A stretch of DNA of 64,000 bases, from the NCBI RefSeq assembly GCF_030655195.1, contig NZ_JAURWA010000195.1, positions 28,160-92,159 of the forward strand, read 5' to 3'. This DNA is from Patulibacter sp. Lineage in GTDB: Bacteria; Actinomycetota; Thermoleophilia; Solirubrobacterales; Solirubrobacteraceae. The position numbers and the translations under genes were made by a program. The notes beneath the pieces were generated by a model, which was not told the DNA's origin, ran no database searches, and was given only the letters and a program-made list of their open reading frames with translations. Shown piece by piece: positions 19,549 to 50,448 of this stretch. How positions within the stretch are numbered: the first letter of the stretch is position 1; every line of letters starts with the position of its first letter.

Positions 19549-21228
19549 TCAGTCAGCCGCGAGCGTCACGGCCCGCGGCGCCAGCGCGGCCTCCTCGGGC
19601 CGATGGGCGACGATCAGCGCCGCGCGACCGGGGACGGCGTCGAGGACCGCCCGGAGGGCCTCCACCGCCTCCGCGGGCGGCAGGTGGCTGGCCGGCTCGT
19701 CCAGCAGGACGAGCGCGTGGCCGCGGGCCAGCACCCCGCGGGCCAGGCCGATCCGCTGGCGCTCGCCGCCCGAGCACCGGGCCCCGCGATCGCCCAGCGG
19801 CGTGTCGAGGCCGTCCTCCAGACCGGCGAGCCAGGCCCCCGCCCCCACGGCGCGCAGCGCCGCGACCAGCTCGTCGTCGCCGGCGTCGGGTCGGGCGAGG
19901 ACGAGGTTCGCCCGCAGGCTCGCGTCGAAGACGTAGGGGTCCTGCGGCAGACCGAGCACCGTCCGGCGGAGCGCACGGCCGTCGGCGGTGCGCAGGTCGC
20001 AGCCGCCGACGGAGGCCTCGCCGGTCCACTCCCCGGGGTCGACGAACCCGACCAGGAGGTCCACGATCGTGCTCTTGCCCACGCCGCTGGGCCCGACGAG
20101 CGCGACGCGCTCCCCCGCGCCGACGGTCATCGACGTGCCGCGTAGGACGGTCCGACCGCCACGACGGACCGCGACGTCGCGGAGCCGGACGACCCCGCCG
20201 TCGGGGCGTCCGGTGCCGTCCTCCGGCCGTGCCGCCCCACCGGTCGCCGGCGCCGCGGCCAGGCGCTCGACGCGGCGGACCGCGTCGGTGCTGTCGTGCA
20301 GCTCGCGGGCCGCCTGCGGCAGCCCGGTCAACGCCTCGCCCAGCCCGAGTGCCAGGAGCGCGAGGAGCCCGACGGAGGTCGGACCGATGCGCCCGTCGGC
20401 GCGCGCGAGCAGCGCGACCGCGACGACCGCGACGGTGCCCAGACCGGCCACCGCCACCGCGGTCGCCCCGACGAGGGCGTCGCGGGTGGCGACGCGCAGC
20501 TCCAGCGCCGTGAGGCGGTCGGACGCGCTCGCGACGCGCTCGGCGTGCCGGTCAGCGGCGCCCGACATCACGATCTCCGGGGCCGCGTCGAGCGTCGTCG
20601 CGACGTCCCGGACGACCCGGGCGCGCAGCGGGGCCAGGCGGGCGGCGGTCCCGCGGGCCGCACGGCGGGCGACCGCGGGGACGACCGCCCCGAGGAGGAC
20701 CGCGACGACGAGCACGACGACCGCCGCGGCCGGCAGCACGAGTGCGGCCGCGACCACGCCCGCGACGGTGACGAGCAGGCCCGCGGCGAGCGGGGCCAGC
20801 GAGCGGAGGAAGACGTCCTGGACGCGGTCGACGTCGGCGACGATCCCGTCGAGGAGCTCGGCGCTGGAGCGGCCGCCGACCGCGCCGGGGATCCGGGGGA
20901 CGAGCGCGGCGAAGGTCCCCGCCCGCAGGCGGGTCAGCGTGCCGAGGACGGCGTCGTGCCCGACGAGCCGCTCCGCGTACCGCGAGACGGCACGCAGGAC
21001 GCCGAGGCCCCGCACGCAGACGATCGCGACCGTCAGCGACAGGACCGGCGGCTGCTCCGCGGCACGCGCGATGAGGTAGCCCGACAGGGCCAGGAGCGCG
21101 GTGCCCGCCAGGCTGGAGACCGCCCCCAGCGCGGCGGCCCCCGCAAGCCGGCGCCGCTCGTCGGGCGAGGCGATCCGGACCGCGCGTCGGACGGTGGCGA
21201 GGGTGCCCTCGCGGGCGACGGTGCTCAC
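19549..21228 (-). CDS. cydC: CydC: ABC exporter subunit for cytochrome bd assembly
   Basis: 559 residues: an N-terminal six-helix exporter domain (about 25-310; GTALLALSGYLIARAAEQPP is the CydC-like TM1-2) and a nucleotide-binding domain with Walker A GPSGVGKST, signature CSGGERQRIGLARG and Walker B LVLLDEPASHLPP. CydDC exports cysteine/glutathione and is needed for heme insertion in bd oxidase. The start overlaps the cydD stop (ATGA); it is the last gene of cydABDC. Confidence 0.9.
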   Translation of the reverse strand: MSTVAREGTLATVRRAVRIASPDERRRLAGAAALGAVSSLAGTALLALSGYLIARAAEQPPVLSLTVAIVCVRGLGVLRAVSRYAERLVGHDAVLGTLTRLRAGTFAALVPRIPGAVGGRSSAELLDGIVADVDRVQDVFLRSLAPLAAGLLVTVAGVVAAALVLPAAAVVVLVVAVLLGAVVPAVARRAARGTAARLAPLRARVVRDVATTLDAAPEIVMSGAADRHAERVASASDRLTALELRVATRDALVGATAVAVAGLGTVAVVAVALLARADGRIGPTSVGLLALLALGLGEALTGLPQAARELHDSTDAVRRVERLAAAPATGGAARPEDGTGRPDGGVVRLRDVAVRRGGRTVLRGTSMTVGAGERVALVGPSGVGKSTIVDLLVGFVDPGEWTGEASVGGCDLRTADGRALRRTVLGLPQDPYVFDASLRANLVLARPDAGDDELVAALRAVGAGAWLAGLEDGLDTPLGDRGARCSGGERQRIGLARGVLARGHALVLLDEPASHLPPAEAVEALRAVLDAVPGRAALIVAHRPEEAALAPRAVTLAAD

Positions 21229-22967
21229 GCCCGGGCCCCCGCCGTCGCGGGCACCGCGGCCGGGAGACCGGGCGGCGGATCCCCGACCGGCCCGACCGGC
21301 CCGTCGCGCCGCCCGTCCCGGAGCGCGACGACCTCGTCCGCCAGGCTCAGCGGTGCCGAGTCGTGGGTGCAGAGGACGGCGGTCCGACCGCGCAGCAGGT
21401 GCTCCAGGGCGTCGACGACCCCGGCCGCGGTGACCGCGTCGAGGTTGGCCGTCGGCTCGTCGACGAGGACCAGGCGGGGGCGGCTCGCGATCGCGCGGGC
21501 GATCGCCACCCGGCGCCGCTCACCGGCCGAGAGCGGCAGCCCGCCGTCACCGACGACGGTGTCCAGTCCGTGCGGCAGCGCCCGCAGGAGCGGCCCGAGT
21601 CCCACCGCCCGGAGCGCCTCCCCGAGCGCGGCGTCGTCGGCGTCCGCGCCGAGAGCGACGTTCTCGCGCAGCGTGCCCGGGAGCAGGACGGGGTGCTGGG
21701 GGATCCAGGCGACGCCCGCCCGCCAGCCGTCGAGGTCCGCGTCGGCCAGGGCGACGTCGCCGCAGCCGACGGTCCCCCCGTCGGGGCCGCGCAGGCCGGC
21801 CAGCAGGCGCAGGACCGTCGTCTTGCCGGAGCCGGGCGGGCCGACGAGCGCGGTCGTGCGACCCGCCGCCACGTGCAGGTCGAGGCCGTCGAGCGCCGGG
21901 CGCTCGCGGCCCGGGGCGGCCACCCGGACGCCGCGCAGGACCAGCGCCTCGCGGGCCGGATCGGGCAGCGGTCCGTCGGGCTCGCCGGTGGGGACGAGGT
22001 GGTCGCGGTCGCCGCCCTCGACCAGCGCCCGCAGGACGGGCTCCGCCTCGGCCGCCGCGTGGTACTCCGCGCCCAGGCGGCGCAGCGGGGCGAAGACCTC
22101 CGGGGCGAGGACCAGCGCGGCGATCGCGGGCGCGAACGCCATGTCGCCCGCGGCCAGTCGGATGCCGCAGGCGACGGCCACCAGCGCGGTGCCGAGCATC
22201 GCCACGAACTCGAGCACGAAGCCCGAGAGGAACGCGGCGCGCAGGACGGCCATGGTGCCGCGGCGGTAGGACTCGCCCGCGACGCGCACCTGCCGGATCT
22301 GCACGTCCTCCCGACCGAACGCCCGCAGCACGGGGAGGCCCCGGAGCACGTCGAGCAGATGCCCGTCGAGCAGCCCGAGCGCGGCGGTGCGGTGCTCGGC
22401 GGCGTCGCGGGCCTGCAGGCCGACCAGGGCGAGGAAGAGGATCACGATCGGGACGGCGACGGCCAGGAGCGCGGCCGACAGCGGGTCGAAGGCGGCGACC
22501 GCGGCGAGCGCGAGGATCGGCCCGACCCCGGCGACGGCGCGCTGGGGCACGTAGCGGCCGGCGTAGTCCGCCAGCGCGCCGGCGCCGTGGACGCTGGTCG
22601 CCGCCAGGGCGCCGGGCCGGGCGGCACCCGAGGACGCGGAGGCGAGGGTCATGACCACGACGCGTCGCCGCAGCGCCGCGACCGCGCGGTGCCCGGTGCG
22701 GCGGCCGTCGATCTCCGCGGCCGCCCCGAGGGCGGCCCGCAGCAGCACCGCGACGGCCAGCGCTCCGAGGGTCCGGACGGCGTCGTCGGTCCGCGGCACG
22801 CCCTCCACCCCGATCGCGATGGCGTGCGCCAGGAGGACGGCGCCGGCCAGGGTGCACGCCGTCGCGGCCACGCCGAGCGCGGCCGTGCGCCGGGTCAGCG
22901 GCCGCAGCTCCGGGGCGAGGACCGTGAGGTCGCGGCGCCCGCGACCGCGGCGCGGCTCGGCGGCCAT
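21225..22967 (-). CDS. cydD: CydD: ABC exporter subunit for cytochrome bd assembly
   Basis: 580 residues. Exporter membrane domain (about 30-320) followed by an ABC domain with Walker A GPPGSGKTT, signature LSAGERRRVAIARA (LSAGE instead of LSGGE) and Walker B LVLVDEPTANLDA. Begins 1 bp after the cydB stop and overlaps cydC, so all four genes are one transcription unit. The extreme Ala/Leu/Arg richness is typical of this genome. Confidence 0.9.
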   Translation of the reverse strand: MAAEPRRGRGRRDLTVLAPELRPLTRRTAALGVAATACTLAGAVLLAHAIAIGVEGVPRTDDAVRTLGALAVAVLLRAALGAAAEIDGRRTGHRAVAALRRRVVVMTLASASSGAARPGALAATSVHGAGALADYAGRYVPQRAVAGVGPILALAAVAAFDPLSAALLAVAVPIVILFLALVGLQARDAAEHRTAALGLLDGHLLDVLRGLPVLRAFGREDVQIRQVRVAGESYRRGTMAVLRAAFLSGFVLEFVAMLGTALVAVACGIRLAAGDMAFAPAIAALVLAPEVFAPLRRLGAEYHAAAEAEPVLRALVEGGDRDHLVPTGEPDGPLPDPAREALVLRGVRVAAPGRERPALDGLDLHVAAGRTTALVGPPGSGKTTVLRLLAGLRGPDGGTVGCGDVALADADLDGWRAGVAWIPQHPVLLPGTLRENVALGADADDAALGEALRAVGLGPLLRALPHGLDTVVGDGGLPLSAGERRRVAIARAIASRPRLVLVDEPTANLDAVTAAGVVDALEHLLRGRTAVLCTHDSAPLSLADEVVALRDGRRDGPVGPVGDPPPGLPAAVPATAGARA

Positions 22968-22968
22968 C

Positions 22969-24027
22969 TCAGGCGTCCTCGGCGGCGCGCCGCCGCTGCA
23001 GGGCGTCCAGCGGGCTCGCCGCCGTCGAGAACCCGTCGGCGGCGACCCGGTGGCGGAAGATCCAGTAGGACCACCCCTGGTAGAGGAAGACGATCGGTGC
23101 CATGACGACCGCCACCCAGGTCATGACCTTCAGCGTGTAGGGCGAGGACGCGGCGCTCGCGACGCTGAGCGTGCCGGCCGGGTCGTCGGTCGAGGGCAGC
23201 ACGTTCGGCCACAGCTGGGCGAACAGCAGCACCGCGGCGCCGAGGATCGTCACGACCGTCCCGGCGAACGCGGCGGACTCGTGCCCGCGCAGGAGCGCCG
23301 CTCCGCCGGCGAGCAGGCCGGCGACGGCGACGGCGACCCCGACGGCTCCGACGACGGACGCGCCGCCGCCCTGACCGAACAGCGACCACAGCCCGAAGGC
23401 CCCCACGAGCACCGTCGCGACCGGCCACGCCCGAAGCGCCAGCCGACGGCTGCGCTGGCGCAGCGCCCCCTCGGTCCGGACCCCGAGGAACGTCGCGCCG
23501 TGGAGCACGAAGAGCGAGAGGATCGCGACGACGCCGAGCAACGCATAGGGGCTCAGCAGGTCGAGGAGGGTCCCCGTGAAGTCGCTGTTGGCGTCGAGCG
23601 GGATCCCGCGCACGACGTCGGCGAGCGCGGCGGCGACCATCGCCGGGGCGAGCACCGAGCAGCCGACCAGGACGCGGTCCCAGCGCGTGGTCCAGACGAT
23701 GTCGTCCTCGTGCTTGCGGCGGTACTCGATGGCGAGCACGCGCAGGATCAGCGCGACGAGCAGGATCAGCAGCGGCAGGTACAGCGCGCTGAACATCGAC
23801 GCGTACCAGTTGGGGAACGCCGCGAACATCGAGGCGCCGGCGACGATCAGCCAGACCTCGTTGCCGTCCCAGACGGGCCCGAAGGTGCGGACCATCTGGT
23901 CGCGCTCCCCCGGGGTCTTCGCCAGGACGAACAGGAGCATGCCGACGCCGAAGTCGAAGCCCTCGAGGACGAGGTAGCCGGCCCAGAAGGCGGCGATGAG
24001 GAGGAACCAGACGGTGGGGAGGTCCAT
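22969..24027 (-). CDS. cydB: Cytochrome bd ubiquinol/menaquinol oxidase subunit II
   Basis: 352 residues from MDLPTVWFLLIAAFW, with eight or nine predicted membrane helices. The family motif LEGFDFGVGML lies in the first helix pair and GNEVWLIVAGASMFAAFP follows (the GNEVWL segment is CydB-specific). The C-terminal YQGWSYWIFRHRV matches the last helix. It forms the heterodimer with CydA. Lies 32 bp after cydA. Confidence 0.94.
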   Translation of the reverse strand: MDLPTVWFLLIAAFWAGYLVLEGFDFGVGMLLFVLAKTPGERDQMVRTFGPVWDGNEVWLIVAGASMFAAFPNWYASMFSALYLPLLILLVALILRVLAIEYRRKHEDDIVWTTRWDRVLVGCSVLAPAMVAAALADVVRGIPLDANSDFTGTLLDLLSPYALLGVVAILSLFVLHGATFLGVRTEGALRQRSRRLALRAWPVATVLVGAFGLWSLFGQGGGASVVGAVGVAVAVAGLLAGGAALLRGHESAAFAGTVVTILGAAVLLFAQLWPNVLPSTDDPAGTLSVASAASSPYTLKVMTWVAVVMAPIVFLYQGWSYWIFRHRVAADGFSTAASPLDALQRRRAAEDA

Positions 24028-24059
24028 GAGCGTGTGCCGGATCGATTCGCGGTCGGAGG

Positions 24060-25574
24060 TCAGTAGACGAGGAGCGGCACGTGCGGGTGCTCGTGGTCCT
24101 CGTCGTGGTCGTGGTCGTCCAGCTCGTCCCGCTCCGGCGTCGGTGCGTCGCCGTTCCCGGAGGCCGCCGGCGGCCGGTCGCCACCCTCGGGGCCCTTCCG
24201 GGCGAGCGTCGTGAACAGCCGGAACTCGATCGCGCCGATCGCGACGTAGAGCACGATGAACACGCCCAGCGAGATCGCGATGGTCGAGACCCCGATCTTC
24301 GACACGGCGTCCTGGGTCTTCAGCAGGCCGGTGACGACCCACGGCTGGCGGCCGACCTCGGTGAACATCCAGCCGGCGGCGTGACCGAGGAAGCCCGCGG
24401 CGAGCGTCCCGAGCGCCAGGCGCCGGAACCACGTGCGCGTGGCGAGCCGCTCGATCCGTCCGGGCGCCCGGCGCATCAGCAGCAGCCCGACGACGGCGAC
24501 CCCGAGCATCCAGAAGCCGAGCCCCATCATCAGACGGAAGGTCCAGTAGGTGACGCCGACGATCGGGTAGTACTCGGCCTCCGCGGGGTCGCGGCCCTGC
24601 GCCCGCTCGTAGGGCGCGAACCGACGCACGTCCTGCGCCTGCAGGTCGTCGATGCCCTCGACCGTCCCGTTGAAGCTGTTGGTCGCGAGGAACGAGGTCA
24701 GCCCCGGGATCTTCAGCTCGAACGACGGGCGGTCGGGCTTCTTCTCCAGCGGGGCGATCGTCATCAGGGACAGCGGGGCGCTCTTCTCCGTGGTGTAGAG
24801 CGCCTCGGCCGCGGCCATCTTCATCGGCTGCTTCTCGGTCATGTACTGCCCGAAGAAGTGGCCGACGACGATCGTCAGGAGCGAGGCGACGAGCATGCCC
24901 TTCAGACCCCAGGACAGCGAGCGGCGGAAGAACGCGGTCTCGTGTCCGGCTCGGCGTCCGAGGTGCCAGATCGAGATGCCGGCCATCAGCCCGGCGGCGG
25001 TCAGGACCGCGGCGGGGATCGTGTGGAGGTACGCGAAGACGGCGTTGCCGCTGGAGAGCACCGCCCAGATCGAGGTCAGGGCGGCGTTGCCGGTCTCCGG
25101 GTCGATGCGGTAGCCGACGGGGTGCTGCATCCAGGCGTTCGCCGCGAGGATGAAGTAGGCGGAGAGGTTCGTGCCGACGAAGACGAGCCAGATCGACGCG
25201 AGATGGAGCTTCTTCGGCAGGTGGTCCCAACCGAAGATCCAGATCCCCAGGAACGTCGACTCGAGGAAGAACGCGGCCAGGCCCTCCATGGCCAGCGGCG
25301 CGCCGAAGACGTCGCCGACGTAGCGCGAGTATGCGCTCCACGCCATGCCGAACTGGAACTCCTGCACCAGGCCGGTCGCGATGCCGATCGCGAAGTTGAT
25401 CAGCAGCAGCTTGCCCCAGAACCGCGTCATCCGCCGGTACTGGTCGTCGCCTGAACGCACCCACCGCGTCTGCATCAGCGCGACGAGGCCCGACAGGCCG
25501 ATCGTCAGCGGGACGAAGATGAAGTGGAAGACGGTGGTGAAGGCGAACTGCCAGCGTGCGAGCTCGAGGAGCAT
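24060..25574 (-). CDS. cydA: Cytochrome bd oxidase subunit I, with His/Asp-rich tail
   Basis: 504 residues. Quinol oxidase signatures: RWQFAFTTVFHFIFVPLTIG (axial His), ESTFLGIWIFGWDHLPKK, and GRQPWVVTGLLKTQDAVS, the GRQPW motif of the family. The quinol-binding loop is short (non-E. coli type). It reduces O2 to water with high affinity and supports respiration at very low oxygen. The last 20 residues are unusually rich in Asp/His (DDHDHDEDHEHPH), possibly metal-binding. Its promoter is of the island type (box 25682-25699). Confidence 0.96.
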   Translation of the reverse strand: MLLELARWQFAFTTVFHFIFVPLTIGLSGLVALMQTRWVRSGDDQYRRMTRFWGKLLLINFAIGIATGLVQEFQFGMAWSAYSRYVGDVFGAPLAMEGLAAFFLESTFLGIWIFGWDHLPKKLHLASIWLVFVGTNLSAYFILAANAWMQHPVGYRIDPETGNAALTSIWAVLSSGNAVFAYLHTIPAAVLTAAGLMAGISIWHLGRRAGHETAFFRRSLSWGLKGMLVASLLTIVVGHFFGQYMTEKQPMKMAAAEALYTTEKSAPLSLMTIAPLEKKPDRPSFELKIPGLTSFLATNSFNGTVEGIDDLQAQDVRRFAPYERAQGRDPAEAEYYPIVGVTYWTFRLMMGLGFWMLGVAVVGLLLMRRAPGRIERLATRTWFRRLALGTLAAGFLGHAAGWMFTEVGRQPWVVTGLLKTQDAVSKIGVSTIAISLGVFIVLYVAIGAIEFRLFTTLARKGPEGGDRPPAASGNGDAPTPERDELDDHDHDEDHEHPHVPLLVY

Positions 25575-32747: not shown

Positions 32748-33452
32748 TCAGCGGGTCTCCATGCGCAGCAGCTGCGCCGCGAACGCGTCGCGGTCCGCTG
32801 CCGCCGGCTGGCGCAGCGCCCCGACCGGGAACCGCACCGTCACGCTCGTCCCCGACGGCACGACCGGGAGGATCTCCACGTCGCCGCCGAGGCGCCGGGC
32901 CCGGCGTGACAGCCGCCCGAGACCGATGTGTCCCGCGGCCCGTGCCGCGTCGGCCTCGGCGGGATCGAGGCCGACGCCGTCGTCGACGACGCGCAGCACC
33001 AGGTCGTCGCCGGCCAGGGCGATTCCCACGACGGCCGTCGTCGCTGCCGCGTGCCGGGCGACGTTCGTCACCAGCTCGCGCACGGTCTCTCGGACGACCG
33101 GGTCGTTGAAGCCGTCCGTGCCGGGCTCGACGTCCACCACGATCCGCACCCGACCCCGGATGCGCAGCGCGCCGACGACGCGATCGATCGCCTCCCGGAG
33201 GGGCAGCTCGTCCAGCGACGGCTCGTGCATCGCCCCGGTGAGGGCCCGCAGCTCGGCGGTCATCCGACGCAGACCGTCCTGCAGCCCGGCCAGGGCGACC
33301 GGATCGCCCGCGACCGCCCCCGCGCAGTCCTGGCGGAGCCCGAGGACCTCCTGCAGCGCTCCGTCGTGCAGCGCGTCGGCCAGCCGTGTCCGCTCCCGGA
33401 GCACGACGGCCCACCTCAGGTCGTCGTCCCGCAGCTCGCTCAGCGTGGCCAT
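32748..33452 (-). CDS. Soluble sensor-less histidine kinase (HisKA_3)
   Basis: 234 residues and no sensory domain. MATLSELRDDDLRW leads straight into the phospho-acceptor helix ADALHDGALQEVLGLRQ, followed by an HATPase domain (VRELVTNVARHA, VVDDGVGLDPAE, GHIGLGRLSRRARRLGGD). A strong RBS (GGAGGT) precedes the ATG. No response regulator is adjacent; the nearest NarL-type one is the DevR-like protein at 36682. Could receive a signal from a protein partner or cross-feed the DosS-like kinase's regulator. Confidence 0.88.
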   Translation of the reverse strand: MATLSELRDDDLRWAVVLRERTRLADALHDGALQEVLGLRQDCAGAVAGDPVALAGLQDGLRRMTAELRALTGAMHEPSLDELPLREAIDRVVGALRIRGRVRIVVDVEPGTDGFNDPVVRETVRELVTNVARHAAATTAVVGIALAGDDLVLRVVDDGVGLDPAEADAARAAGHIGLGRLSRRARRLGGDVEILPVVPSGTSVTVRFPVGALRQPAAADRDAFAAQLLRMETR

Positions 33453-33488
33453 CGGTACCTCCTGCGGCGGGCACGTGGCCTGCCTTCG

Positions 33489-33567
33489 AGACCGAACCGC
33501 TCCCGCGGCGCGACCATCCTCGTCCTTCGGGAGCCGCCCACAGGGGGTGCGGCGCGTACTCCGTCCC
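33489..33567 (-). promoter_or_regulatory. Island-type promoter of orphan kinase gene (long spacing)
   Basis: Minus strand: box GGGACGGAGTACGCG (33567-33553), GATGG (33518-33514), 19 nt, CGGTCT (33494-33489). Box-to-GATGG distance is about 44 bp rather than 31, i.e. one helical turn longer. Confidence 0.45.
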
Positions 33568-33612
33568 TCCGACGCTAGTCCTCTGCGCCCCGATTGCAAG
33601 GGGACCTGGTCC

Positions 33613-34797
33613 TCAGCCCAGCCGCAGCTGCACGTCGACGCCCTCGACGCGGCGGTCCGCGTGCACCGGCAGGTGGACGAGGCCGCGGGCCTCCAGGTAC
33701 GGCGAGAGGTAGTGCCCGGAGACCTTCGACGGCGGCCACCAGAGCGGCCGGTCGTCCGCCTCGCTCCGGCCGCTCTCCCCCGGTCCGCGGCGAAGGAAGC
33801 GGTCGCCGTGACCGGTCAGCAGGCGTCCCCGGAGCTCCGGGACGTACGGCAGCGGCGAGACGTGCCCCCCGGCGTGCGAGGCGATGCAGGTGGCGACGGC
33901 GTCCGCCTGCTGGCAGGCGAGCCCGCCCTGCTTCACCGGGTGGGTCGTGGCGTCCCCGGCGGCCCAGACCCCGTCGACGCCGGCGACGGAGCCGAAGCGG
34001 TCGACCGGCAGGAAGCCCTGGGCGTCGCTCGGCAGACCCGCGATGCGCGGGCCGTCGAGGAGCGGGAGCGCGACGATCCGCTCGACGTGGAGGTCCTGCC
34101 CGTTCCCGAGGTCGACGTGGTTGTTGCGCGCGACGTCCGCCCGGACGCCGGCGTGCAGCGTGATGCCGGCCGCTCGCAGCAGGTCGGCGACCGCCGCACC
34201 GGCCTCCTCGCCGAAGATCTCGAGCGGGACCCGCTCCGGCGTGACGAGGTGCAGCTCCACGTCGTCGGCGTCCATCCCCCACACGTCCTGCGCGGTCATC
34301 AGCGCGAGCTCGTAGAGCGGCAGCGGCCAGGTGCTGCCGTCGGGGACGACGAACGCGACGCTCTGGGAATAGCCCTCCTCGAGGTCCGCCAGGAGACCGC
34401 CGATCGCCAGGAAGTCCGACCCGAAGGTCAGGCTGTGGCCGAACGCGGGCCGCGCCTCGGCCCCGACCGCGACGACGAGCACGTCGTAGGGCTCGTCCGG
34501 CCCCGTCGAGCACCGGACGGTTCGTCGCTCCGCGTCGACGCCGGTGACGGCGGTCCGGCGGAACCGACCGCCGTGCTCGTCCATGAACGCCGCGAGGTCC
34601 AGCCGGTCCGCGTGGCCGCGGGCGAACGGCCGGGCGACGTTCAGCGGCCGCAGGGTGAACTCGGGCTCGGGGGCGATCATCGTGGTCCGCACCAGCCCCG
34701 GGGCCAGGTCGTGGAGGGCCAGCACGAGCTCCAGCGCGGCGATGCCGCCCCCGACGACGACGACTGCGGGGCGTTCTGCGGGCGCGCTGCGATCCAT
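33613..34797 (-). CDS. FAD/NAD(P)-dependent oxidoreductase, NDH-2/sulfide-quinone-reductase-like (paralogue 1)
   Basis: 394 residues. N-terminal FAD motif VVVVGGGIAALELVLAL; second dinucleotide region about 150-250; GVWAAGDATTHPVKQGGLACQQADAVA is the FAD-ribityl contact typical of the NDH-2/SQR/FCSD group. The SQR catalytic cysteine pair is not evident. The C-terminus has RPLWWPPSKVSG, shared with the second copy at 52587 (GPLWWPPTKIAG). Substrate unknown; quinone or flavocytochrome partner plausible. Confidence 0.82.
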   Translation of the reverse strand: MDRSAPAERPAVVVVGGGIAALELVLALHDLAPGLVRTTMIAPEPEFTLRPLNVARPFARGHADRLDLAAFMDEHGGRFRRTAVTGVDAERRTVRCSTGPDEPYDVLVVAVGAEARPAFGHSLTFGSDFLAIGGLLADLEEGYSQSVAFVVPDGSTWPLPLYELALMTAQDVWGMDADDVELHLVTPERVPLEIFGEEAGAAVADLLRAAGITLHAGVRADVARNNHVDLGNGQDLHVERIVALPLLDGPRIAGLPSDAQGFLPVDRFGSVAGVDGVWAAGDATTHPVKQGGLACQQADAVATCIASHAGGHVSPLPYVPELRGRLLTGHGDRFLRRGPGESGRSEADDRPLWWPPSKVSGHYLSPYLEARGLVHLPVHADRRVEGVDVQLRLG

Positions 34798-34803
34798 GAC
34801 GAC

Positions 34804-34869
34804 ATCGTCCGCCCGGCGACCCTGGACGGCATCCGGGACCGACCACCGGAGACCGCGTGGTTCCTACCC
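34804..34869 (-). promoter_or_regulatory. Island-type promoter of FAD oxidoreductase 1
   Basis: Minus strand: box GGGTAGGAACCACGCG (34869-34854, overlapping the end of the kinase gene), GATGC (34833-34829), 19 nt, GACGAT (34809-34804). Confidence 0.55.
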
Positions 34870-36591
34870 GTCGGCGCCGGCGCCGGGGGGCCGGAGCGGC
34901 AGGTCGAGGGCCACGACGGTGCCGCCGCCCGACCCCGGACCGATCGTCGTCACGCCGCCGGCGAGCGCCGCCCGCTCCAGCATCCCGACCACCCCGAAGC
35001 CCGACCCGACCGGGGCCTCCGGGCGGCGGTCGCCACCGGCGCCGGGAGCGGCACCACCCCCGCCCGGTCCCCGCCCGTCGTCGACCACCCGGAGCAGGAA
35101 CCGGTCGGCGTCCTGACGGACCACGAGCTCGACGGACGACGCCCCGGCGTGCTTGAGCACGTTGGTCACCGCCTCCTGCGCCACGCGGTAGGCGGTCGTC
35201 TCGACCTCGGGCGGGAGCCGCGCCCGACCCAGGTCGATGTCCACCCGGGCGCGTACCCCGGTCCCGCCCGTCAGGCGGGCGACGAGCGTGCGGAGCGCGG
35301 GCTCCAGCCCCAGCTCGTCGAGGGCCGCGGGGCGCAGATCGGCGATGATGGCCCGCAGCGCCTCGATCTCGTGCTCGACCTGCCCGACCGCAGACTCCAC
35401 CGCGGGCCGTCCGGTTCCCGAGGGCGCGCGCAGCGCCCCGCCCAGGAGGATCTTCAGCGACGCGAGGCCCTGGAGCGTCTGGTCGTGCAGCTCCCGCGCC
35501 CAGCGGGTGCGCTCGGCCTCCGCGGCGGCCATCGTGTCCTGCAGCCGCTGGCGCTCGACCAGGCGGGCCGTCGCGACGGCCGTCGACGCGCTGGCCGCGA
35601 AGGCCGCGAGCGTCCGCTCGTGGTCGGCACCGAACGTCGTCGAGGTCCCCCGGCGATCGAACGCCACCAGCACGCCGAGGCCCTGGCCGCGGTGGGTCAG
35701 CGGGACCACGAGGGCGCTGCGGGCACCGTCCATCCCGAACTCCGCCGGGTCGGCCCGCAGTGACCGGGCGTCGGCGACGCGTACGGGCCGACCGGTCCGG
35801 AGCGCCTCGCCGGCGGTCGATCCGTCGACCGGGATCGACGCCGCGGACGGCACCTCCTCGTCCCCGGCGACCGCGGCGATCCGCAGCTCGTCGCCCTCCC
35901 GCAACCAGATCAGCAGGCCGTGGGCGTCGACGAGCTCGCGGGCCCGACGGGCGATCAGCTCGAGGATCGGAGGGAGCCCGGTGTCGGAGCCGATCGCCTC
36001 GGCGATCTCGATCGTCGTCCGCATGGTCTGCTCGACCTCGGCCCGTCCGCGGGCGGACTCGGCGAACAGCCGGGCGTTGTCGATCGCGATCCCCGCCCAC
36101 TGCGCGAGCGTCACGATCGAGTCCACATCGTCGTCGTCGAAGTCCTCCCCGGTCCGCTTCTCCGACAGGTAGAGGTTCCCCCAGATCCGGCCGTGGACCG
36201 TGATCGGTGCCCCGAGGAAGCTCCGCATCGGCGGATGGCCGGGCGGGAACCCGTAGGAGCGCGGATGTTGCGAGATGTCGTGGAGCCGGATCGGGGTCGG
36301 GCGATCGATCAGCAGGCCGAGGATCCCGTGGCCGCGGGGGAGGTCCCCGATGGTCTCGCGGGTCTCCTCGTCGAGCCCGAGCGTGAGGAACTCGGCCAGG
36401 CCGGTCCGCGCCTCGTCGAGCACCCCGAGCGCGGCGTACCGCGCGCCGGTCAGGTCCCGGCCCGCGACGAGCAGGCGGTCGAGCATGGTCTGCAGGTCGA
36501 GCTCGGCGGTCAGCGCCCGGCCCGCGGCCAGGAGCCGCTCGAGGCGGACGACGTGGCGCTCGGAGGCGTCGATGGGAGTGGGCACGGGCAC
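34864..36591 (-). CDS. DosS/DevS-type heme-GAF sensor histidine kinase
   Basis: 575 residues from a GTG at 36591; the track ORF runs too far upstream. TACGCT lies 4 nt before this GTG; a second GTG at 36585 is an alternative. Order: GAF-A (about 30-165), GAF-B (about 180-330), HisKA_3 (WARELHDQTLQGLASLK) and HATPase (GFGVVGMLERAALAGG). GAF-A is strikingly DosS-like: DISQHPRSYGFPPGHPPMRS and WGNLYLSEK. The histidine before PPM (H119) corresponds to the DosS heme ligand H149 and the tyrosine of NLYL (Y141) to distal Y171, with the same 22-residue spacing. DosS/DosT sense O2, NO, CO or redox through this heme. Divergent from its probable partner regulator. Confidence 0.93.
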   Translation of the reverse strand: MPVPTPIDASERHVVRLERLLAAGRALTAELDLQTMLDRLLVAGRDLTGARYAALGVLDEARTGLAEFLTLGLDEETRETIGDLPRGHGILGLLIDRPTPIRLHDISQHPRSYGFPPGHPPMRSFLGAPITVHGRIWGNLYLSEKRTGEDFDDDDVDSIVTLAQWAGIAIDNARLFAESARGRAEVEQTMRTTIEIAEAIGSDTGLPPILELIARRARELVDAHGLLIWLREGDELRIAAVAGDEEVPSAASIPVDGSTAGEALRTGRPVRVADARSLRADPAEFGMDGARSALVVPLTHRGQGLGVLVAFDRRGTSTTFGADHERTLAAFAASASTAVATARLVERQRLQDTMAAAEAERTRWARELHDQTLQGLASLKILLGGALRAPSGTGRPAVESAVGQVEHEIEALRAIIADLRPAALDELGLEPALRTLVARLTGGTGVRARVDIDLGRARLPPEVETTAYRVAQEAVTNVLKHAGASSVELVVRQDADRFLLRVVDDGRGPGGGGAAPGAGGDRRPEAPVGSGFGVVGMLERAALAGGVTTIGPGSGGGTVVALDLPLRPPGAGADG

Positions 36592-36681: not shown

Positions 36682-37323
36682 ATGAGCGCCATCCGCATCG
36701 TCCTCGCGGATGACCACCAGGTGGTGCGCGCCGGTCTCGGGATGCTGCTCGAGGTCGTCGACGGCATCGAGGTCGTCGCACAGGCCGGCGACGTCGACGC
36801 GACGCTGCGCGCCGTCCTCGGCCACAAGCCCGACGTCCTCGTCCTGGACCTGAACATGCCGGGCACGCTCACCTCGCTCGAGGCGATCCCGCTCGTCCGG
36901 GAGCGCTCCCCCCTGACCGCGACCGTCGTCCTGACGATGCAGGAGGACCCGGAGTACGCACGGCGGTCGCTGCGCGCCGGGGCCATGGGCTACGTCCTCA
37001 AGGAGTCCGCCGACACCGAGCTCGTCGAGGCGATCCGGCGGGCGGCCGACGGCCAGACCTACCTCAACCCCTCGCTCGGCGCCCGGCTCGTCGCGATGCC
37101 CGAGAAGCCCACGGGCCCGCCCGGGGACCTCTCCGGCCGCGAGGTCGAGGTGCTCCGGCTCCTGGCCCTCGGGCACACCAACGCCGAGGTCGGGGACCGG
37201 CTGTTCCTGTCGGTCCGCACGGTCGAGACCCACCGCGCGCACGTGCAGCAGAAGCTCTCGCTCAGCACCCGGGCCGAGCTCGTCCGCTACGCGCTGGATC
37301 ACGAGCTGCTCGGCGGCGCCTGA
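36682..37323 (+). CDS. DevR/DosR-like NarL-family response regulator
   Basis: 213 residues. Receiver: LADDHQVVRAGLGMLLE, phospho-Asp in VLVLDLNMPGTLTS, Lys in MGYVLKESADTEL. C-terminal LuxR helix-turn-helix: LSGREVEVLRLLALGHTNAEV and SVRTVETHRAHVQQKL. TACGCT is 6 nt before the ATG (leaderless). 90 bp divergent from the DosS-like kinase; neither gene shows the island box, so the pair may be constitutive and drive the regulon. The 3' end overlaps the convergent DUF1003 gene by 25 bp. Confidence 0.92.
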   Translation: MSAIRIVLADDHQVVRAGLGMLLEVVDGIEVVAQAGDVDATLRAVLGHKPDVLVLDLNMPGTLTSLEAIPLVRERSPLTATVVLTMQEDPEYARRSLRAGAMGYVLKESADTELVEAIRRAADGQTYLNPSLGARLVAMPEKPTGPPGDLSGREVEVLRLLALGHTNAEVGDRLFLSVRTVETHRAHVQQKLSLSTRAELVRYALDHELLGGA

Positions 37324-37778
37324 CGGGCGTAGAGCTCCTCGGTCAGCAGCGCGATCCGCTCGGTCAGCTCGGTGTTGACCCGCAGGAGTTCGCGCAGCCC
37401 GGCGGTCTGCTGCTCGACGTGTGCACGCTGCTCCTCGGCGACCCGGGAGTCCTGCGCCGCGGTCACTTCGTCGCGGTCCGCCTGGCGGGTCTGGGCCAGC
37501 AGGATCAGCGGCGCTGCGTAGGCCGCCTGCGTCGAGAACGCGAGGTTGAGCAGGATGAACGGATAGGGGTCCCAGCGCATCGAGACGGCGACCGCGTTCA
37601 GGGCGATCCACACCGCCACCAGGACCGTCTGCCCGACGATGAACTGCGGCGTGCCGAAGAGCCGGGCGAAGCGCTCGGCGAGCCGGCCGAACCGGTCGGC
37701 CCCGAACGGGCTGTGGGCGACCTCGGAGGCGACGCGGTCGAGGACCGATGGCCTCCGGCGGGCGGGCGTGGTGCTCAC
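37299..37778 (-). CDS. DUF1003 membrane protein
   Basis: GTG start at 37778 in a GTGA overlap with the carbamate kinase stop; 159 residues. Two membrane helices (PQFIVGQTVLVAVWIALNAVAV; PFILLNLAFSTQAAYAAPLILLAQ) separated by a short loop, then the charged coiled tail RQADRDEVTAAQDSRVAEEQ, which is the DUF1003 layout. Function unknown in the family. Coupled to arcC. Confidence 0.82.
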   Translation of the reverse strand: MSTTPARRRPSVLDRVASEVAHSPFGADRFGRLAERFARLFGTPQFIVGQTVLVAVWIALNAVAVSMRWDPYPFILLNLAFSTQAAYAAPLILLAQTRQADRDEVTAAQDSRVAEEQRAHVEQQTAGLRELLRVNTELTERIALLTEELYARQAPPSSS

Positions 37779-38800
37779 GACCCCGGGCCCCCGGCGGTCG
37801 CGAGGCGGCCGGCGGCGTCCGTGGTGCCGGCGTCCGCGGACGCGATCCCGCGGTAGGTCACCTCGGCCTCGCCCGGGCCGGCCGCCCGGACGTGCGTCCC
37901 GGCATCGCCCGCGACGAGCCCCGCCAGATCCGCGAGCCGTCCGATCACCGCCCGGCCGCCCGTCGCCTCGACGAAGCCGCAGACCGCGTCGACCTTCGGA
38001 CCCATCGAGCCCTCTGGGAACGTCTGTCTCCGCAGCCACGCCGGCGACGCGCTCTCGATCGCCCGAGCATCGGGACCGCCCCACCCGACGTAGACCGCGT
38101 CGACGTCGGTGGCCAGCACGAGCAGATCGGCGTCGAGACCCTCCGCCAGGAGCGCCGACGTGAGGTCCTTGTCGATCACGGCCTCGACACCCACCAGCCG
38201 CCCCGCGTCGGCGACGACCGGGACGCCGCCCCCGCCGGCGCAGACCACGAGGAAGCCGCCCGCCACGAGGGTCCGGACGGCCGCGAGCTGCACGATCCGC
38301 CGCGGTACCGGGGAGGGGACCACGCGGCGCCAGTCCTCGCCGTCCTCCCGGACCTCCCACCCGTGCTCGCGGGCCAGGTGCGCCGCGCGTTCTGCGTCGT
38401 AGACCGGTCCGATGAACTTCGTGGGCGTCCGGAAGGCGGGATCGTCGGCGTCGACGACCACGCGGGTGATGACCGTGACGACCTCCTGACGGTCGATCGC
38501 GTCGTCGAGGGCGGACTCGATCACGTAGCCGATCTGGCCCTCGGACTCCGCGTCCAGCACGTCCAGCGGGTAGGGAGCGCCGTCGGCGTAGGCGTCCTCC
38601 TTCAGGGCGAGCAGGCCCACCTGCGGCCCGTTGCCGTGGGTCACCACCAGCCGGGCACCGCCGGCCACAGCCGCGAGCGCGTGCGCGGCCTGCCGGGCCG
38701 AGCGCTGTTGCCCCGCGGCGGTCGCGGGCTCCCCTCGGCGCAGGAGCGCGTTGCCGCCCAGGGCGACGACGGCGAGCGGGCGCGGGGCACGGGTCTGCAT
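37775..38800 (-). CDS. arcC: Carbamate kinase
   Basis: 341 residues from [25 protein letters not shown] is the N-terminal amino-acid-kinase motif, [11 protein letters not shown] and GGGGVPVV are substrate/nucleotide loops, and FIGPVYD plus [12 protein letters not shown] match carbamate kinases. It makes ATP from ADP and carbamoyl phosphate, the energy step of the arginine deiminase pathway. Divergent from the transporter-arcA-arcB genes rather than within them. A GATGG sits 31 bp from the box but too close to the start to be a promoter element of the usual form, so its promoter is unclear. Confidence 0.93.
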
Positions 38801-38829
38801 GCCTCCATCGTCGTCCCCGGTCTCCGCTG

Positions 38830-38923
38830 CGCGTACGGGGTTGTCCGCAGTCCGGCTGCGGACTCGTCCCTGCGCCGGGTGCGGCGGCCGGCGGATGGCA
38901 CGCCCCTCGGCGCCGCTCAGAGT
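38830..38923 (+). promoter_or_regulatory. Island-type promoter of arc transporter-arcA-arcB
   Basis: Box CGCGTACGGGGTTGTCCGC (38830-38848) running into a perfect inverted repeat GTCCGCAG-TCCGG-CTGCGGAC (38843-38863); GATGG (38894-38898), 19 nt, CAGAGT (38918-38923). Inverted-repeat centre to GATGG is about 43 bp. Confidence 0.65.
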
Positions 38924-38973
38924 GCGGTCACACCCCGGGACACCGGGCGACCGAACACCGAAGGAGCGTCGAG

Positions 38974-40593
38974 ATGACCCAGGAGCTGGCCCCAGCACCA
39001 CCCCGCAGCGAGCGGCCCGAGGGCATCCGTCCACCCGACGGGCACGAGCCGCCGGTCGTCCCGGAGCCTCCCGAGGCCGACGCCGACCCGTCCCCGGCCG
39101 GGAAGCCCCGGCGCTTCCCGACCGCCTTCACGGTGCTCGCCGGCGTGCTGCTCGTCGTCTGGCTGCTGTCGTTCGTGATCCCGTCCGGGGCCTACGACGT
39201 CGACCCGAAGTCGGGTGGCCCCGTCCCCGGCACCTACCACCGGGTCGACACCGACAAGTCCGTCGTCCACCAGTTCTCGAAGCTCTGGGCCGCGCCCACC
39301 AACGGTCTCTACGGCGTCGAGAACGACCGCGGCGGGGTGAGCGTCGACAACACCGGGACGCTCTACGGGTCCGCGCAGATCTTCTTCTTCGTGCTCGCCA
39401 TCGGCGCGTTCATCACGGTGACGATGAAGACGGGCGCGATCCAGACCGGGATCGGACGTCTGGCCCTGCGGTTCAGACGGAGCCCCGCGATCCTGATCGT
39501 CGTCCTGATGGTGGTCTTCGCGCTCGGCGGGACGACCGAGGGGATGTGGGAGGAGACCCTCGGGTTCTTCGTCCTCCTCGTCCCCCTCACCCTGGCGCTG
39601 GGCTTCGACCGCATGACCGGCGCGGGGATCGTCTTCCTCGGCTGCGGCTCGGGGGTCCTCGCCTCCACGGTCAACCCGTTCGCCACCGGCGTGGCCTCCG
39701 ACGCCGCCGGGGTCGGCGTCGGCGACGGCATCGCCCTGCGCCTGCTGATGTGGATCGTGATCGTCGGCGTCGCCATCGCCTACGTGCTGCGGTACGCGTT
39801 CCGGGTGCGCAAGGACCCGACCCGCTCGGTCCTCGGCCCCGCCGGCCTGACGTCCGCGGGTCTGCCGATGGCCGACGAAGCGGCCGGCGACGTCGCGCCC
39901 CTGACCCGCCGGCAGGGCTTCGTGCTCGTCCTCTTCTTCTCCGCCTTCGCGCTGATGATCTACGGGTTCATCCCGTGGGACGAGATCTGGCAGACGATCT
40001 TCTCGGCCGACTTCCCGCTGCCGACGTTCGAGGCCTTCTACTTCGCCCAGGCGAGCGTCCTGTTCCTCGTCATGGCCGTCGTCATCGGCATGGTCGCCAA
40101 GCTCGGCGAGAAGGGGACGGTCGGCGCGATCGTCGGCGGCGCCTCGGACTTCCTCGGACCGGCGCTGATCATCGTCCTGGCCCGCGCAGTGACCGTGGTG
40201 ATGAAGAACGCCGAGGTCACCGACACGCTCCTGCACTGGATGGAGAACGGCGTCTCGGGGACCTCCGGCGGCGTCTTCGGCGGGATCGCGGTCCTCGTCA
40301 ACATGCCCATCGCGTTCCTCGTGCCGTCGTCCTCGGGCCACGCCGCGCTGGTGATGCCGATCCTCGGACCCCTCGCGGACTTCGCGAGCGTCCCACGGTC
40401 GATCGCCGTCACCGCGTTCCAGTCCGCGTCGGGCCTCGTGAACCTGATCACGCCGACCTCCGCGGTGATCATGGGCGGCCTCGCGCTCTCCAAGATCGGC
40501 TACGACCGCTACCTGCGCTTCGTCCTGCCGTTCTTCGCCATCGCGCTGGTCCTCTGCCTGGCGTTCGTCGGTGTCGGCGCGGTGGTCTCGTGA
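38974..40593 (+). CDS. YfcC-family (DcuC superfamily) membrane transporter, likely arginine/ornithine
   Basis: 539 residues. A Pro-rich cytoplasmic N-terminus (1-48) precedes about 12 membrane helices. [53 protein letters not shown] and [18 protein letters not shown] are typical of the YfcC/C4-dicarboxylate-anaerobic-carrier-like family, members of which act as arginine/ornithine exchangers next to arginine deiminase genes. RBS AAGGAG. Substrate is inferred from context only. Confidence 0.85.
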
Positions 40594-44009: not shown

Positions 44010-44115
44010 CGAATAGCCGATGCCGAACCCGCGTGGCGGTCGGCTGGCCGAGTTGGCCGTCCCGGACGGTCGGGAGCGGTCGTCCGCCGGTCGCCCCGCA
44101 CGTCGACCGCGGCGT

Positions 44116-44204
44116 CGGTGGTTCTCCGCAGACCGGCTGCGGACCGACCCGCGGGACGACCGTGGCGGGCACCGGATGCCACGACCGCGCCGACCGCGCA
44201 GAGT
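44116..44204 (+). promoter_or_regulatory. Island-type promoter of P-type ATPase operon
   Basis: Box CGGTGGTTCTCCGCAG (44116-44131) with inverted repeat CCGCAG-ACCGG-CTGCGG (44126-44142), GATGC (44175-44179), 19 nt, CAGAGT (44199-44204). The whole region to the ATG is visibly similar to the promoter at 38830. Confidence 0.65.
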
Positions 44205-44254
44205 GCGGGAGACCGCCGGGACACCGCCCGACCGAGTACCACGAGGAGGGCCCG

Positions 44255-47024
44255 ATGCAGGACACGGCCACCGTCCGGGAAGCCGACAGGCACCCCGGTC
44301 AGGACGTCGACCCGGAGGAGGACGCGACGCGCCTGCTCGAGCACCTGCGCACGCGCACCGGCGGCCTCGACGAGCGCGAGGCGGCCCGCCGCCTCTTGCA
44401 GGTCGGCCCGAACGAGATCCGACGCGAGACCGGCCCGCCGTGGTGGCGGGCCGTCGTGGACCAGTTCGTCCACCCGCTCGCCCTGCTGCTGTGGCTCGCC
44501 GCGGGGCTGTCGCTTCTCACCTCGTCCTACGCGCTGGCGGCCGCGATCATCGTCGTCATCGTCCTGAACGCCGCGTTCGCGTTCGTGCAGGAGCGTCAGG
44601 CCGAGCACGCCACCGAGGCGCTGCGCGACCTGCTCCCGGCGACGGCGCGGGTCCGCCGCGGCGGGGCGCTCGTCGAGGTCGCGGCCACCAGCCTGGTCCC
44701 CGGCGACCTGCTGCTGCTCGCCGAGGGCGACCGGCTCTCCGCCGACGCCCGGCTCATCTCCGGCGACGTCGAGGTCGACCTGTCGCCGCTGACGGGCGAG
44801 TCGCAACCGGTCTCGCGCACCGCGCGCCGGATCGGGCCACCGGCCCCGCCGCTGGAGGCCGAGGACCTCGTCTTCGCCGGCACGCTCTGCACCGGCGGCG
44901 ACGGCCAGGCCGTCGTCTACGGCACCGGCATGCACACCCAGCTCGGCCGGATCGCCGCACTGTCGCAGACCGTCGTGACCGAGAGCTCGCCGCTGCAGCG
45001 TCAGGTGAACAAGGCCGCCAAGCTCATCGCCCTCGTGGCGATCGGGCTGGGCGTCGCGTTCTTCGTCGTCGGCCACCTCGTCGCGGGGCTCAGCCTGTCC
45101 GATGCGGGCGTCTTCGCCATCGGCCTGCTCGTCGCGAACGTCCCCGAGGGGCTGCTGCCCACGATCACCCTCGCCCTCGCGGTCGGTGTCCGCCGCATGG
45201 CGAGGCGCCGCGCGCTGGTCAAGAAGCTCACCGCCGTCGAGACGCTCGGCTCCACCGACGTCATCTGCACCGACAAGACCGGCACCCTGACCGAGGGCCG
45301 GATGACCGGGACGTCGCTCTGGCAGGACGGGGTGATCACGGCGATCCCCTCGGGGACGGCCACGCCCCCGGTCACCGAGCTCCTCCGCGCCGCCGTCTTC
45401 TGCAACAACGCGACGCTGACCCGCGACGGCACCGGGTGGTCGCGCAGCGGCGACCCGAGCGAGAGCGCGCTGCTGCTCGCCGCCGCCGAGCTCGGGGTCG
45501 ACGTCCCCGCGATCCAGGACGCGCGGGACCGCGACCGCCTGCGGCTCTTCGCCTTCGACGCGCGCCTGAAGCGGATGGCGACGCTGGACCGCGCCGCAGC
45601 CGGACCCGCCCGCATCCACGCCAAGGGCGCCCCGCTGGGCCTCCTCGAGCACTGCACGACCGTGCGCACCGCCGACGGCGGCGAGCGCCCGCTGGACGCC
45701 GCGGGCGTCGCTGCCGTCACCGCCGCGTTCCACGCCTACGCCGCCGACGGCCTGCGCGTCCTGGGGATCGCCGGTCGCGACGCACCTGACGTCTCCCGCG
45801 ACCGTGCCGACGACCGCGACCTCGCGGAGTCCGGCCTCTGCTTCCTCGGCCTGATCGCCATGCGCGACCCGCTGCGTCCTCAGGTTCCCGCCGCCGTGGC
45901 GGACTGCCGCCGCGCCGGGATCCGCATCATCGTCATCACCGGCGACGACGGCCTGACCGCCGGGGCGATCGCCCGCGAGGCCGGGATCGTCGACGGCGAC
46001 GACGCGCAGGTCGTCACCGGCCCCGAGCTCGACGCGCTGGACGACGCCGGCCTGGACCGCGTGCTGCGCGACTCGCCGCACCTGATCGTCGCCCGCAGCT
46101 CGCCCGAGGCGAAGCTGCGCATCGTCGACGGCCTGCGCGCCCAGGGCCACACCGTCGCGATGACCGGCGACGGCGTCAACGACGCCCCCGCCCTGCGCCG
46201 CGCCGACATCGGCATCGCGATGGGCGCCTCGGGCACCGACGTCGCCCGCGAGGCCGCCGACATGGTCCTCACCGACGACGACTTCGCGTCGATCGTCGCC
46301 GCCGTCAAGGAGGGGCGGACGGTCTACGACAACATCCGCAAGTTCGTCGTCTACATCTTCGCCCACGCGACGCCGGAGATGATCCCGTTCCTGCTCTATG
46401 CGCTGTCGGGCGGCAACATCCCGCTGCCGCTGACGGCGCTGATGATCCTCGCGATCGACCTGGGCACGGAGACGCTGCCGGCCCTCGCGCTCGGCCGGGA
46501 GCCCGCCGAGCCGGGCCTCATGGACCAGCCGCCTCGTCCGCGGACCAGCGGCATCCTCACACGGTCGATGCTCGTCCGCGCCTGGCTCTGGCTCGGGCTG
46601 CTCGAGGCGGTCCTCGTGATGGGCGGCTTCTTCTTCGTCCTCGTGCGCGCCGGCTGGTCGCCGGGCGACGCGACCGGGCCGGGGACCGACCTGCACGGCG
46701 CCTACCTGCAGGCCACGACGATGACCTTCGCCGGCATCACGATGTGCCAGGTCGGCACGGCGTTCGCGGCGCGAACGAGCCGCGCGTCGCTGCGCCAGAT
46801 CGGCCTGTTCACCAACCCGATGCTCCTGTGGGGAATCGCGTTCGAGCTCGTCTTCGCCGCGGCGCTGATCTGGCTGCCGCCGCTCCAGGACGTCTTCCGC
46901 ACCGCGTCCCTGGGCGTCGCCGAGGTGGCGATCCTCCTGACGTTCCCGTTCGTCGTCTGGGGCAGCGACGAGCTGCGCCGGGCCGCGGTGCGGCGCCGGG
47001 CCGGCGCACCCACGGAGGTGGTCC

Positions 47025-47038
<14 letters not shown>
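44255..47038 (+). CDS. P2-type cation-transporting ATPase (Na+/K+-ATPase-like M4/M6)
   Basis: 927 residues from MQDTATVREA with RBS GAGGAGG. Actuator motif LTGESQPV, phosphorylation site VICTDKTGTLTEGRM, hinge MTGDGVNDAPAL. M4 is NVPEGLLPTITLAL and M6 is MILAIDLGTETLPALALGRE, both closer to Na+/K+- or H+/K+-ATPase-like P2 members than to Ca2+ pumps. About ten membrane helices. It overlaps the next ATPase by 14 bp. Cation uncertain. Confidence 0.9.
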
Positions 47039-49812
<2,774 letters not shown>

Positions 49813-49820
<8 letters not shown>

Positions 49821-49880
49821 TTCGCCGCGACCCGGCCCGGCGGGTCTACGGATGGCGCCGGTCATCCGCGGTGCGACGCT
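49813..49880 (+). promoter_or_regulatory. Island-type promoter of Usp 49911
   Basis: Box CCGGGTAGTTCGCCGC (49813-49828), GATGG (49851-49855), 19 nt, GACGCT (49875-49880). The box overlaps the ATPase stop codon. Confidence 0.65.
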
Positions 49881-49910
49881 CGGAGGGATCTACGACGAAG
49901 CGAGTGACGC

Positions 49911-50402
49911 ATGATTCTGGTGGCCTACGACGGATCCGACGACGCCCGGGAGGCGATCGCCCACGTCGGTCGGCTGATGCCCGGCGCGACCACGACCGTG
50001 GTCTCGGTGTGGGAGCCGTTCGTCGACGCGCTGCGCCACAGCACCTTCGGCATGGGCACCCTGATGGCCGGCACGGTCGTCGAGACCGAGATCGACGAGG
50101 CCAAGCTCGCCGAGTCGCGGGAGAGCGCCGACGAGGGCGTCGAGCTCGCCGTCGAGGCCGGGCTGGTCGCCCGCCCGCGGTCCGAGTCGCGGGTCGGCAG
50201 CATCGCCGAGACCCTGCTCGTGACCGCCGCGGCGGTCGACGCGGACCTCGTCGTGGCCGGGACCCGCGGCCGCGGAGGCTTCGCGTCGTTCGTCCTCGGC
50301 AGCGTGTCCAACGCACTGGTGCAGCACGCGGACCGGGCGATCCTGATCGTCCCGTCGCCGGCCCTGGCCGAACGCCGCGCCACCGGGACCGACCGGGGCT
50401 GA
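49911..50402 (+). CDS. Single-domain universal stress protein
   Basis: 163 residues, one Usp fold: MILVAYDGSDDAREAIAHVG at the N-terminus and AGTRGRGGFASFVLGSVSNAL with the canonical ATP-binding GxRGxGG(9)GS(V/I)S. A large middle loop contains HSTFGMGTLMAG. Of the five Usp proteins in the island it is the only single-domain, UspA-like one. Confidence 0.92.
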   Translation: MILVAYDGSDDAREAIAHVGRLMPGATTTVVSVWEPFVDALRHSTFGMGTLMAGTVVETEIDEAKLAESRESADEGVELAVEAGLVARPRSESRVGSIAETLLVTAAAVDADLVVAGTRGRGGFASFVLGSVSNALVQHADRAILIVPSPALAERRATGTDRG

Positions 50403-50448
50403 GCCCGGCCGACCCGGACGGGCGGGGGCCCGCTCCGACGGCCCGGGA

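What the first reader, a model, noticed from the sequence alone, without database searches (positions are those of the whole stretch)
34864..36591. Sensor kinase keeps the DosS/DosT heme pocket
GAF-A contains DISQHPRSYGFPPGHPPMRS and WGNLYLSEK. The histidine before PPM and the tyrosine in NLYL match DosS H149 (heme ligand) and Y171 (distal) with identical 22-residue spacing. This strongly predicts a heme-based O2/NO/CO or redox sensor and gives a signal for the surrounding regulon.
Basis: partly seen in the sequence, partly recalled or inferred. Interest (0 to 1): 0.72.

Follow-up and report, generated by a model that had tools for sequence, protein, structure and literature searches.

The report
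DosT-like heme oxygen-sensor histidine kinase
This actinobacterium (probably order Solirubrobacterales) carries a sensor kinase whose first sensing domain has the key heme-pocket residues of the tuberculosis oxygen sensors DosS and DosT, so it probably detects oxygen, NO or CO; it belongs to a known kind, but to a large branch not found in the papers searched and paired with a different gene regulator.

Summary
The minus-strand gene 34864-36591 (575 aa) encodes GAF-GAF-HisKA_3-HATPase_c. Its GAF-A matches the heme-bound GAF-A of Mtb DosT (E 3e-43, 54% identity) and DosS (E 3e-38, 47%). H119 and Y141 fall on DosS H149 (heme ligand) and Y171 (distal) with the same 22-residue spacing, and the AlphaFold GAF-A superposes on the heme-bound crystal structures at TM about 0.9. 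H and Y are kept in all 50 related GAF-A domains examined, while the paired GAF-B and every other alignable GAF domain of the genome lack the pair. The position of DosS E87 is Gly (G56), as in DosT, and 4 of 7 DosS/DosT-discriminating residues are DosT-like, so an O2-binding gas sensor is favoured over a DosS-type redox/H2S sensor.

The 'surrounding regulon' is only partly supported. The adjacent response regulator co-localises with such kinases (35/40 loci versus 0/20 controls), as do a flavoprotein (25/40) and Usp genes (17/40). But it is not DosR-like, no DosR/OsdR box is enriched, and links to cytochrome bd and arcC are not significant. Verdict: a new member of a known kind, in its own clade; heme binding is inferred, not shown.

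The parts
34864..36591 (-). DosS/DosT-type sensor histidine kinase, 575 aa: GAF-A (aa 32-170), GAF-B (209-340), HisKA_3 (360-424; H369), HATPase_c (464-567; N477, D504, G506, G508)
   Evidence: Pfam; PDB phmmer; invariant kinase residues, checked; model
36082..36498 (-). GAF-A, the predicted heme domain, aa 32-170
   Evidence: E 3e-43 to DosT 2vzw, E 3e-38 to DosS 2w3d; TM about 0.9 to heme-bound GAF-A structures
36235..36237 (-). codon of H119, equivalent of DosS proximal heme ligand H149
   Evidence: invariant in 50/50 related GAF-A domains
36169..36171 (-). codon of Y141, equivalent of DosS distal Y171
   Evidence: invariant in 50/50 related GAF-A domains
36424..36426 (-). codon of G56, at the DosS E87 / DosT G85 position
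   Evidence: Gly in 50/50 related GAF-A domains and in all 80 loci of the genome-contig scan
36682..37323 (+). divergently transcribed NarL-family response regulator, the likely partner
   Evidence: Pfam; homologue near the kinase in 35/40 loci versus 0/20 control regions
33613..34797 (-). FAD/NAD pyridine-nucleotide oxidoreductase without conserved cysteines, possibly in an operon with the kinase
   Evidence: Pfam; homologue near the kinase in 25/40 versus 0/20 controls; no conserved Cys
32748..33599 (-). histidine kinase core (DHp plus HATPase) without a recognised sensor domain, third gene of the run
   Evidence: present in the closest relative G003 at 69% identity
30105..31124 (+). tandem universal stress protein; Usp genes are associated with such kinases
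   Evidence: Pfam; Usp near the kinase in 17/40 versus 0/20 controls

Best explanation
The gene encodes a heme-based gas-sensor histidine kinase of the DosS/DosT family. GAF-A binds heme b through H119, and Y141 on the distal side hydrogen-bonds the bound gas. With Gly56 in place of DosS Glu87 the ligand channel is open, so it most likely forms a stable ferrous-O2 complex as DosT does: kinase off with O2 bound, on when deoxy or bound to NO/CO. The signal passes through GAF-B and the helical linker to H369 and then to the adjacent divergent NarL-type response regulator, which would adjust nearby stress and low-oxygen genes. Shown here: homology, pocket residues, predicted fold, intact kinase motifs and conserved neighbouring genes. 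Inferred: heme binding, ligand preference, direction of the switch, phosphotransfer and target genes.
For: GAF-A matches DosT E 3e-43 and DosS E 3e-38, 54% and 47% identity. H119=H149, Y141=Y171, G56=DosT G85, N139=DosT Asn; 4 of 7 DosS/DosT-discriminating positions are DosT-type (positions and their functional roles from PMC4082495). H, Y and Gly are invariant in 50 related GAF-A domains; the H/Y pair is absent from the paired GAF-B domains. In the tree the query's clade (100/97) lies next to the clade holding DosS and DosT. The AlphaFold GAF-A superposes on heme-bound DosS/DosT at TM 0.86-0.93, rmsd mostly 1.4-1.8 A. Kinase catalytic residues are intact. A response-regulator homologue lies nearby in 35/40 loci versus 0/20 controls (p=1e-11). 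The window also holds cytochrome bd genes, itself a heme enzyme.
Against: No spectroscopy. Residue 58 is Leu where DosS has His89 and DosT Arg, so the DosS distal hydrogen-bond chain is not retained. The transmitter is not specifically DosS-like (VraS scores a little higher than DosS), and the response regulator is not specially DosR-like. The AlphaFold model was built without heme, and the loop before H119 is among its less certain parts (pLDDT 67). The 80 loci were found with patterns that include the H and Y motifs, so only the BLAST-found set is unbiased for those two residues.
Confidence: 0.85

Rival explanations
1. It binds heme but works as a DosS-type redox or H2S sensor: O2 oxidises the heme to the ferric, inactive state, and the neighbouring flavoprotein or the quinone pool re-reduces it.
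For: DosS has been proposed as a redox sensor (PMC4082495) and binds H2S through ferric heme (PMC9062744). A flavoprotein gene co-localises with such kinases in 25/40 loci.
Against: Gly56 replaces Glu87, the residue blamed for DosS autooxidation, and E87G/E87A DosS was reported to form stable oxy complexes (PMC4082495). DosT showed no increase in activity with sulfide (PMC9062744). The flavoprotein lacks conserved cysteines, so it is probably not a sulfide:quinone reductase.
Confidence: 0.1
2. GAF-A keeps the fold and motif by descent but binds another ligand, or no cofactor, in this clade.
For: GAF domains bind many ligands (general knowledge), and neither sequence nor an apo model can show heme.
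Against: The proximal His, distal Tyr and Gly are invariant across 50 divergent homologues, while GAF-B in the same proteins lacks the His/Tyr pair.
Confidence: 0.05

Closest known systems
DosT (Rv2027c) of Mycobacterium tuberculosis
   Same: Tandem GAF plus histidine kinase plan; proximal His, distal Tyr, open-channel Gly, Asn two before the Tyr; 54% identity in GAF-A
   Different: Leu58 instead of Arg at the H89 position; generic transmitter; partner is not specially DosR-like; separate clade
DosS/DevS of Mycobacterium tuberculosis
   Same: Same domain plan, H149 and Y171 equivalents, 47% identity in GAF-A
   Different: Gly56 instead of Glu87, Leu58 instead of His89, Asn139 instead of Thr169
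OsdK/OsdR of Streptomyces coelicolor (PMC5069765)
   Same: DosS-type kinase lying among universal stress protein genes outside mycobacteria
   Different: OsdR is 61% identical to DevR and binds DevR sites; the regulator here is not specially DevR-like and no OsdR-type box is enriched

Membership tests
DosS/DosT heme GAF sensor kinases | Two N-terminal GAF domains followed by a HisKA_3 and HATPase_c kinase core | tested here: met
   Pfam
DosS/DosT heme GAF sensor kinases | Proximal heme histidine (H149) in GAF-A | tested here: met
   H119
DosS/DosT heme GAF sensor kinases | Distal tyrosine (Y171) in GAF-A | tested here: met
   Y141
DosS/DosT heme GAF sensor kinases | GAF-A fold of the heme-bound structures | tested here: met
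   Predicted model, TM 0.86-0.93 to 2vzw, 2w3d-h, 2y79, 2y8h, 4ynr, 4yof
DosS/DosT heme GAF sensor kinases | Bound heme b and ligand-dependent autophosphorylation | not testable with these tools
   Needs purified protein
DosS/DosT heme GAF sensor kinases | GAF-A groups with DosS and DosT in a tree | tested here: inconclusive
   The query's clade lies next to the one holding DosS/DosT, with the second GAF group outside, but the joining fork is weak (93/49) and the root is a midpoint root
DosR dormancy two-component system | Partner regulator of the DosR type | tested here: not met
   VraR, ChrA and NarL score above DevR; the C-terminal domain is closer to VraR than to DosR
DosR dormancy two-component system | DosR or OsdR boxes near target genes | tested here: not met
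   0 DosR boxes with up to 3 mismatches; 7 GGGAC-N4-GTCCC pairs with up to 1 mismatch versus 13 expected; 5 OsdR-type sites versus 6.6 expected

The most novel reading that the evidence does not exclude
In this lineage the heme kinase works as a module with a dedicated flavoprotein oxidoreductase (33613-34797) that reduces the sensor heme or links it to the NADH or quinone pool, and with a non-DosR regulator controlling an independent low-oxygen regulon.
Probability: 0.12. Interest if true: 0.6.

Novelty: new member of a known kind. Interest (0 to 1): 0.33.

Why it matters
It extends DosS/DosT-type gas sensing, known to me mainly from mycobacteria and Streptomyces, to another actinobacterial order in which 60 of 101 genomes searched carry a strong homologue (count), uniformly with the DosT-type Gly in those examined. 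That gives a set of natural open-channel sensors with which to test whether Glu87 makes DosS unusual, and a conserved kinase-regulator-flavoprotein neighbourhood in which the physiological reductant of such heme sensors could be sought.

Tried and rejected
DosR box and half-site scans: nothing above chance. OsdR-type site: not enriched. A shared operator in the kinase/regulator intergenic region of four relatives: no conserved palindrome seen by eye. Sulfide:quinone reductase identity for the flavoprotein: rejected as unlikely, since no cysteine is conserved and the only PDB match is weak (E 1e-4, about 100 N-terminal residues). A second DosS-type GAF-A kinase in the own genome: none found. 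No paper in the library holds both Solirubrobacter and DosR. The PdtaS heme-sensing paper (heme on a PAS domain) was read and does not apply.

Full report
What is there. The minus-strand ORF 34864-36591 encodes 575 aa with a GTG start and coding-like codon composition. Pfam finds GAF (32-170), a second GAF (209-340), HisKA_3 (360-424) and HATPase_c (464-567). The quoted peptides are present. H119 and Y141 are 22 residues apart, as are DosS H149 and Y171.

Is the match real? Phmmer against the PDB puts GAF-A first against DosT GAF-A (2vzw, E 3e-43) and then the DosS GAF-A structures (E 3e-39 to 3e-38); the next match is E 9e-6. H119 falls on H149 and Y141 on Y171 with no gap between them; identity is 54% to DosT and 47% to DosS over 140 columns. 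H149 was identified as the heme ligand and Y171 as the ligand-discriminating residue in Mtb DosS (PMC4082495).

Is the motif specific? Homologues were taken by BLAST from 100 related genomes, a search that does not demand the motif. All 50 DosS-type GAF-A domains read keep His, Tyr and the Gly, Asn and Pro named here; a second group of more distant GAF kinases (42-47% identity) keeps Gly, His and Tyr too (10/10); the GAF-B domains of the same proteins and still more distant GAFs do not keep the His/Tyr pair. In the window's own genome 13 GAF domains were found and only GAF-A of this protein carries the pair among those that align. Eighty further loci, mostly actinobacterial with one Chloroflexota and one Dormiibacterota, all keep G-H-Y, but those were found with patterns that include the H and Y motifs, so they are weaker evidence for H and Y (the Gly was not in a pattern).

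Which kind of Dos sensor? The DosS residue Glu87, blamed for blocking the heme channel and for autooxidation, is Gly85 in DosT and Gly56 here. Of seven positions that separate DosS from DosT (PMC4082495), four are DosT-type here (Gly, Glu, Arg, Asn), one is DosS-type (Asp90), two are neither (Leu58 at H89, His88 at L118). This favours a DosT-like O2-binding gas sensor. Whether Glu87 truly controls autooxidation is itself disputed in the review, so this is an inference.

Structure. An AlphaFold model from a 23-sequence alignment (mean pLDDT 86) places H119 in the loop before strand 125-132 and Y141 in strand 135-145. Foldseek gives TM 0.86-0.93 (by target length), rmsd mostly 1.4-1.8 A, to the heme-bound DosS and DosT GAF-A crystals. 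Full-length multi-domain GAF proteins such as phytochromes and PDEs rank higher by E-value because they match more than one domain, at 14-18% identity. The model has no heme, and the loop before H119 is one of its less certain parts.

Kinship. In a GAF-A tree of 106 sequences the query sits in a clade of 58 rows (100/97) made up of same-order relatives and named Solirubrobacterales/Thermoleophilia records, next to a clade (99/96) holding DosS, DosT, Streptomyces, Nocardioides and others, with the second GAF group outside. The tree has few columns, the joining fork is weak, and it is midpoint-rooted. Sixty of 101 genomes carry a homologue at 158 bits or more (my count from the list).

Transmitter and partner. 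The kinase residues H369, N477, D504, G506 and G508 are intact, but the transmitter is not specially DosS-like: VraS scores a little above DosS. The divergent NarL-family regulator 36682-37323 scores higher against VraR, ChrA and NarL than against DevR. A homologue lies in the region of up to 20 kb around the kinase in 35 of 40 loci from relatives and in 0 of 20 control regions (p=1e-11). In most relatives it lies just downstream on the opposite strand; in the query's closest kin it is upstream and divergent. The 40 loci are not all independent (some genomes give two) and some contigs are shorter than 20 kb.

The surroundings. The same comparison finds the flavoprotein 33613-34797 in 25/40 (p=8e-7) and Usp genes in 17/40 (p=2e-4); cydA, arcC and CBS genes are not significant. 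The window itself is rich in genes recalling DosR and OsdR regulons: cydABDC, aldehyde dehydrogenase, CBS, VIT, Usp, DUF1269/YflT, carbamate kinase, a YfcC-type carrier and two P-type ATPases. But no DosR or OsdR site is enriched and no shared operator was seen, so control of these genes by this system is not shown.

The flavoprotein. It matches Pyr_redox_2, TIGR03169-type oxidoreductases well below their cut-off and, weakly, sulfide:quinone reductase, but its homologues conserve no cysteine, so it is probably not a sulfide:quinone reductase. A role in reducing the sensor heme is speculation.

Verdict. The observation and the heme reading stand; the sensor is best called a DosT-like member of a known kind, in a clade for which the library search found no DosR-related paper. 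Heme binding, ligand response and targets await experiment.

Noticed in passing
L040-L049 (for example L044:172-1284 -): A second group of GAF kinases in the related genomes (370 aa with one GAF domain in L044) keeps the same His and Tyr (HPxM...Y) in 10/10 members; possibly another heme-sensor group, 41-47% identical to GAF-A.
   Followed up: partly
window 32748-33599 (-): Histidine kinase core without a recognised sensor domain, directly after the flavoprotein gene; conserved at 69% in the closest relative, so the run may be kinase - flavoprotein - second kinase.
   Followed up: partly
window 19549-25574 (-): Cytochrome bd set (cydA, cydB and two CydDC-type ABC genes) about 10 kb from the sensor kinase.
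   Followed up: partly
window 37775-40593: Carbamate kinase (arcC) beside a YfcC/DcuC-type carrier, suggesting fermentative amino-acid energy metabolism; their start regions overlap as listed.
   Followed up: no
window 44033-51423: Two consecutive P-type cation ATPases followed by two Usp genes, recalling the ctpF/usp pairing of the DosR regulon (recalled from memory).
   Followed up: no
window 6042-8161 (+): MpsC-family protein (Na+-translocating membrane potential-generating system) just after an ECF-type sigma factor ORF.
   Followed up: no
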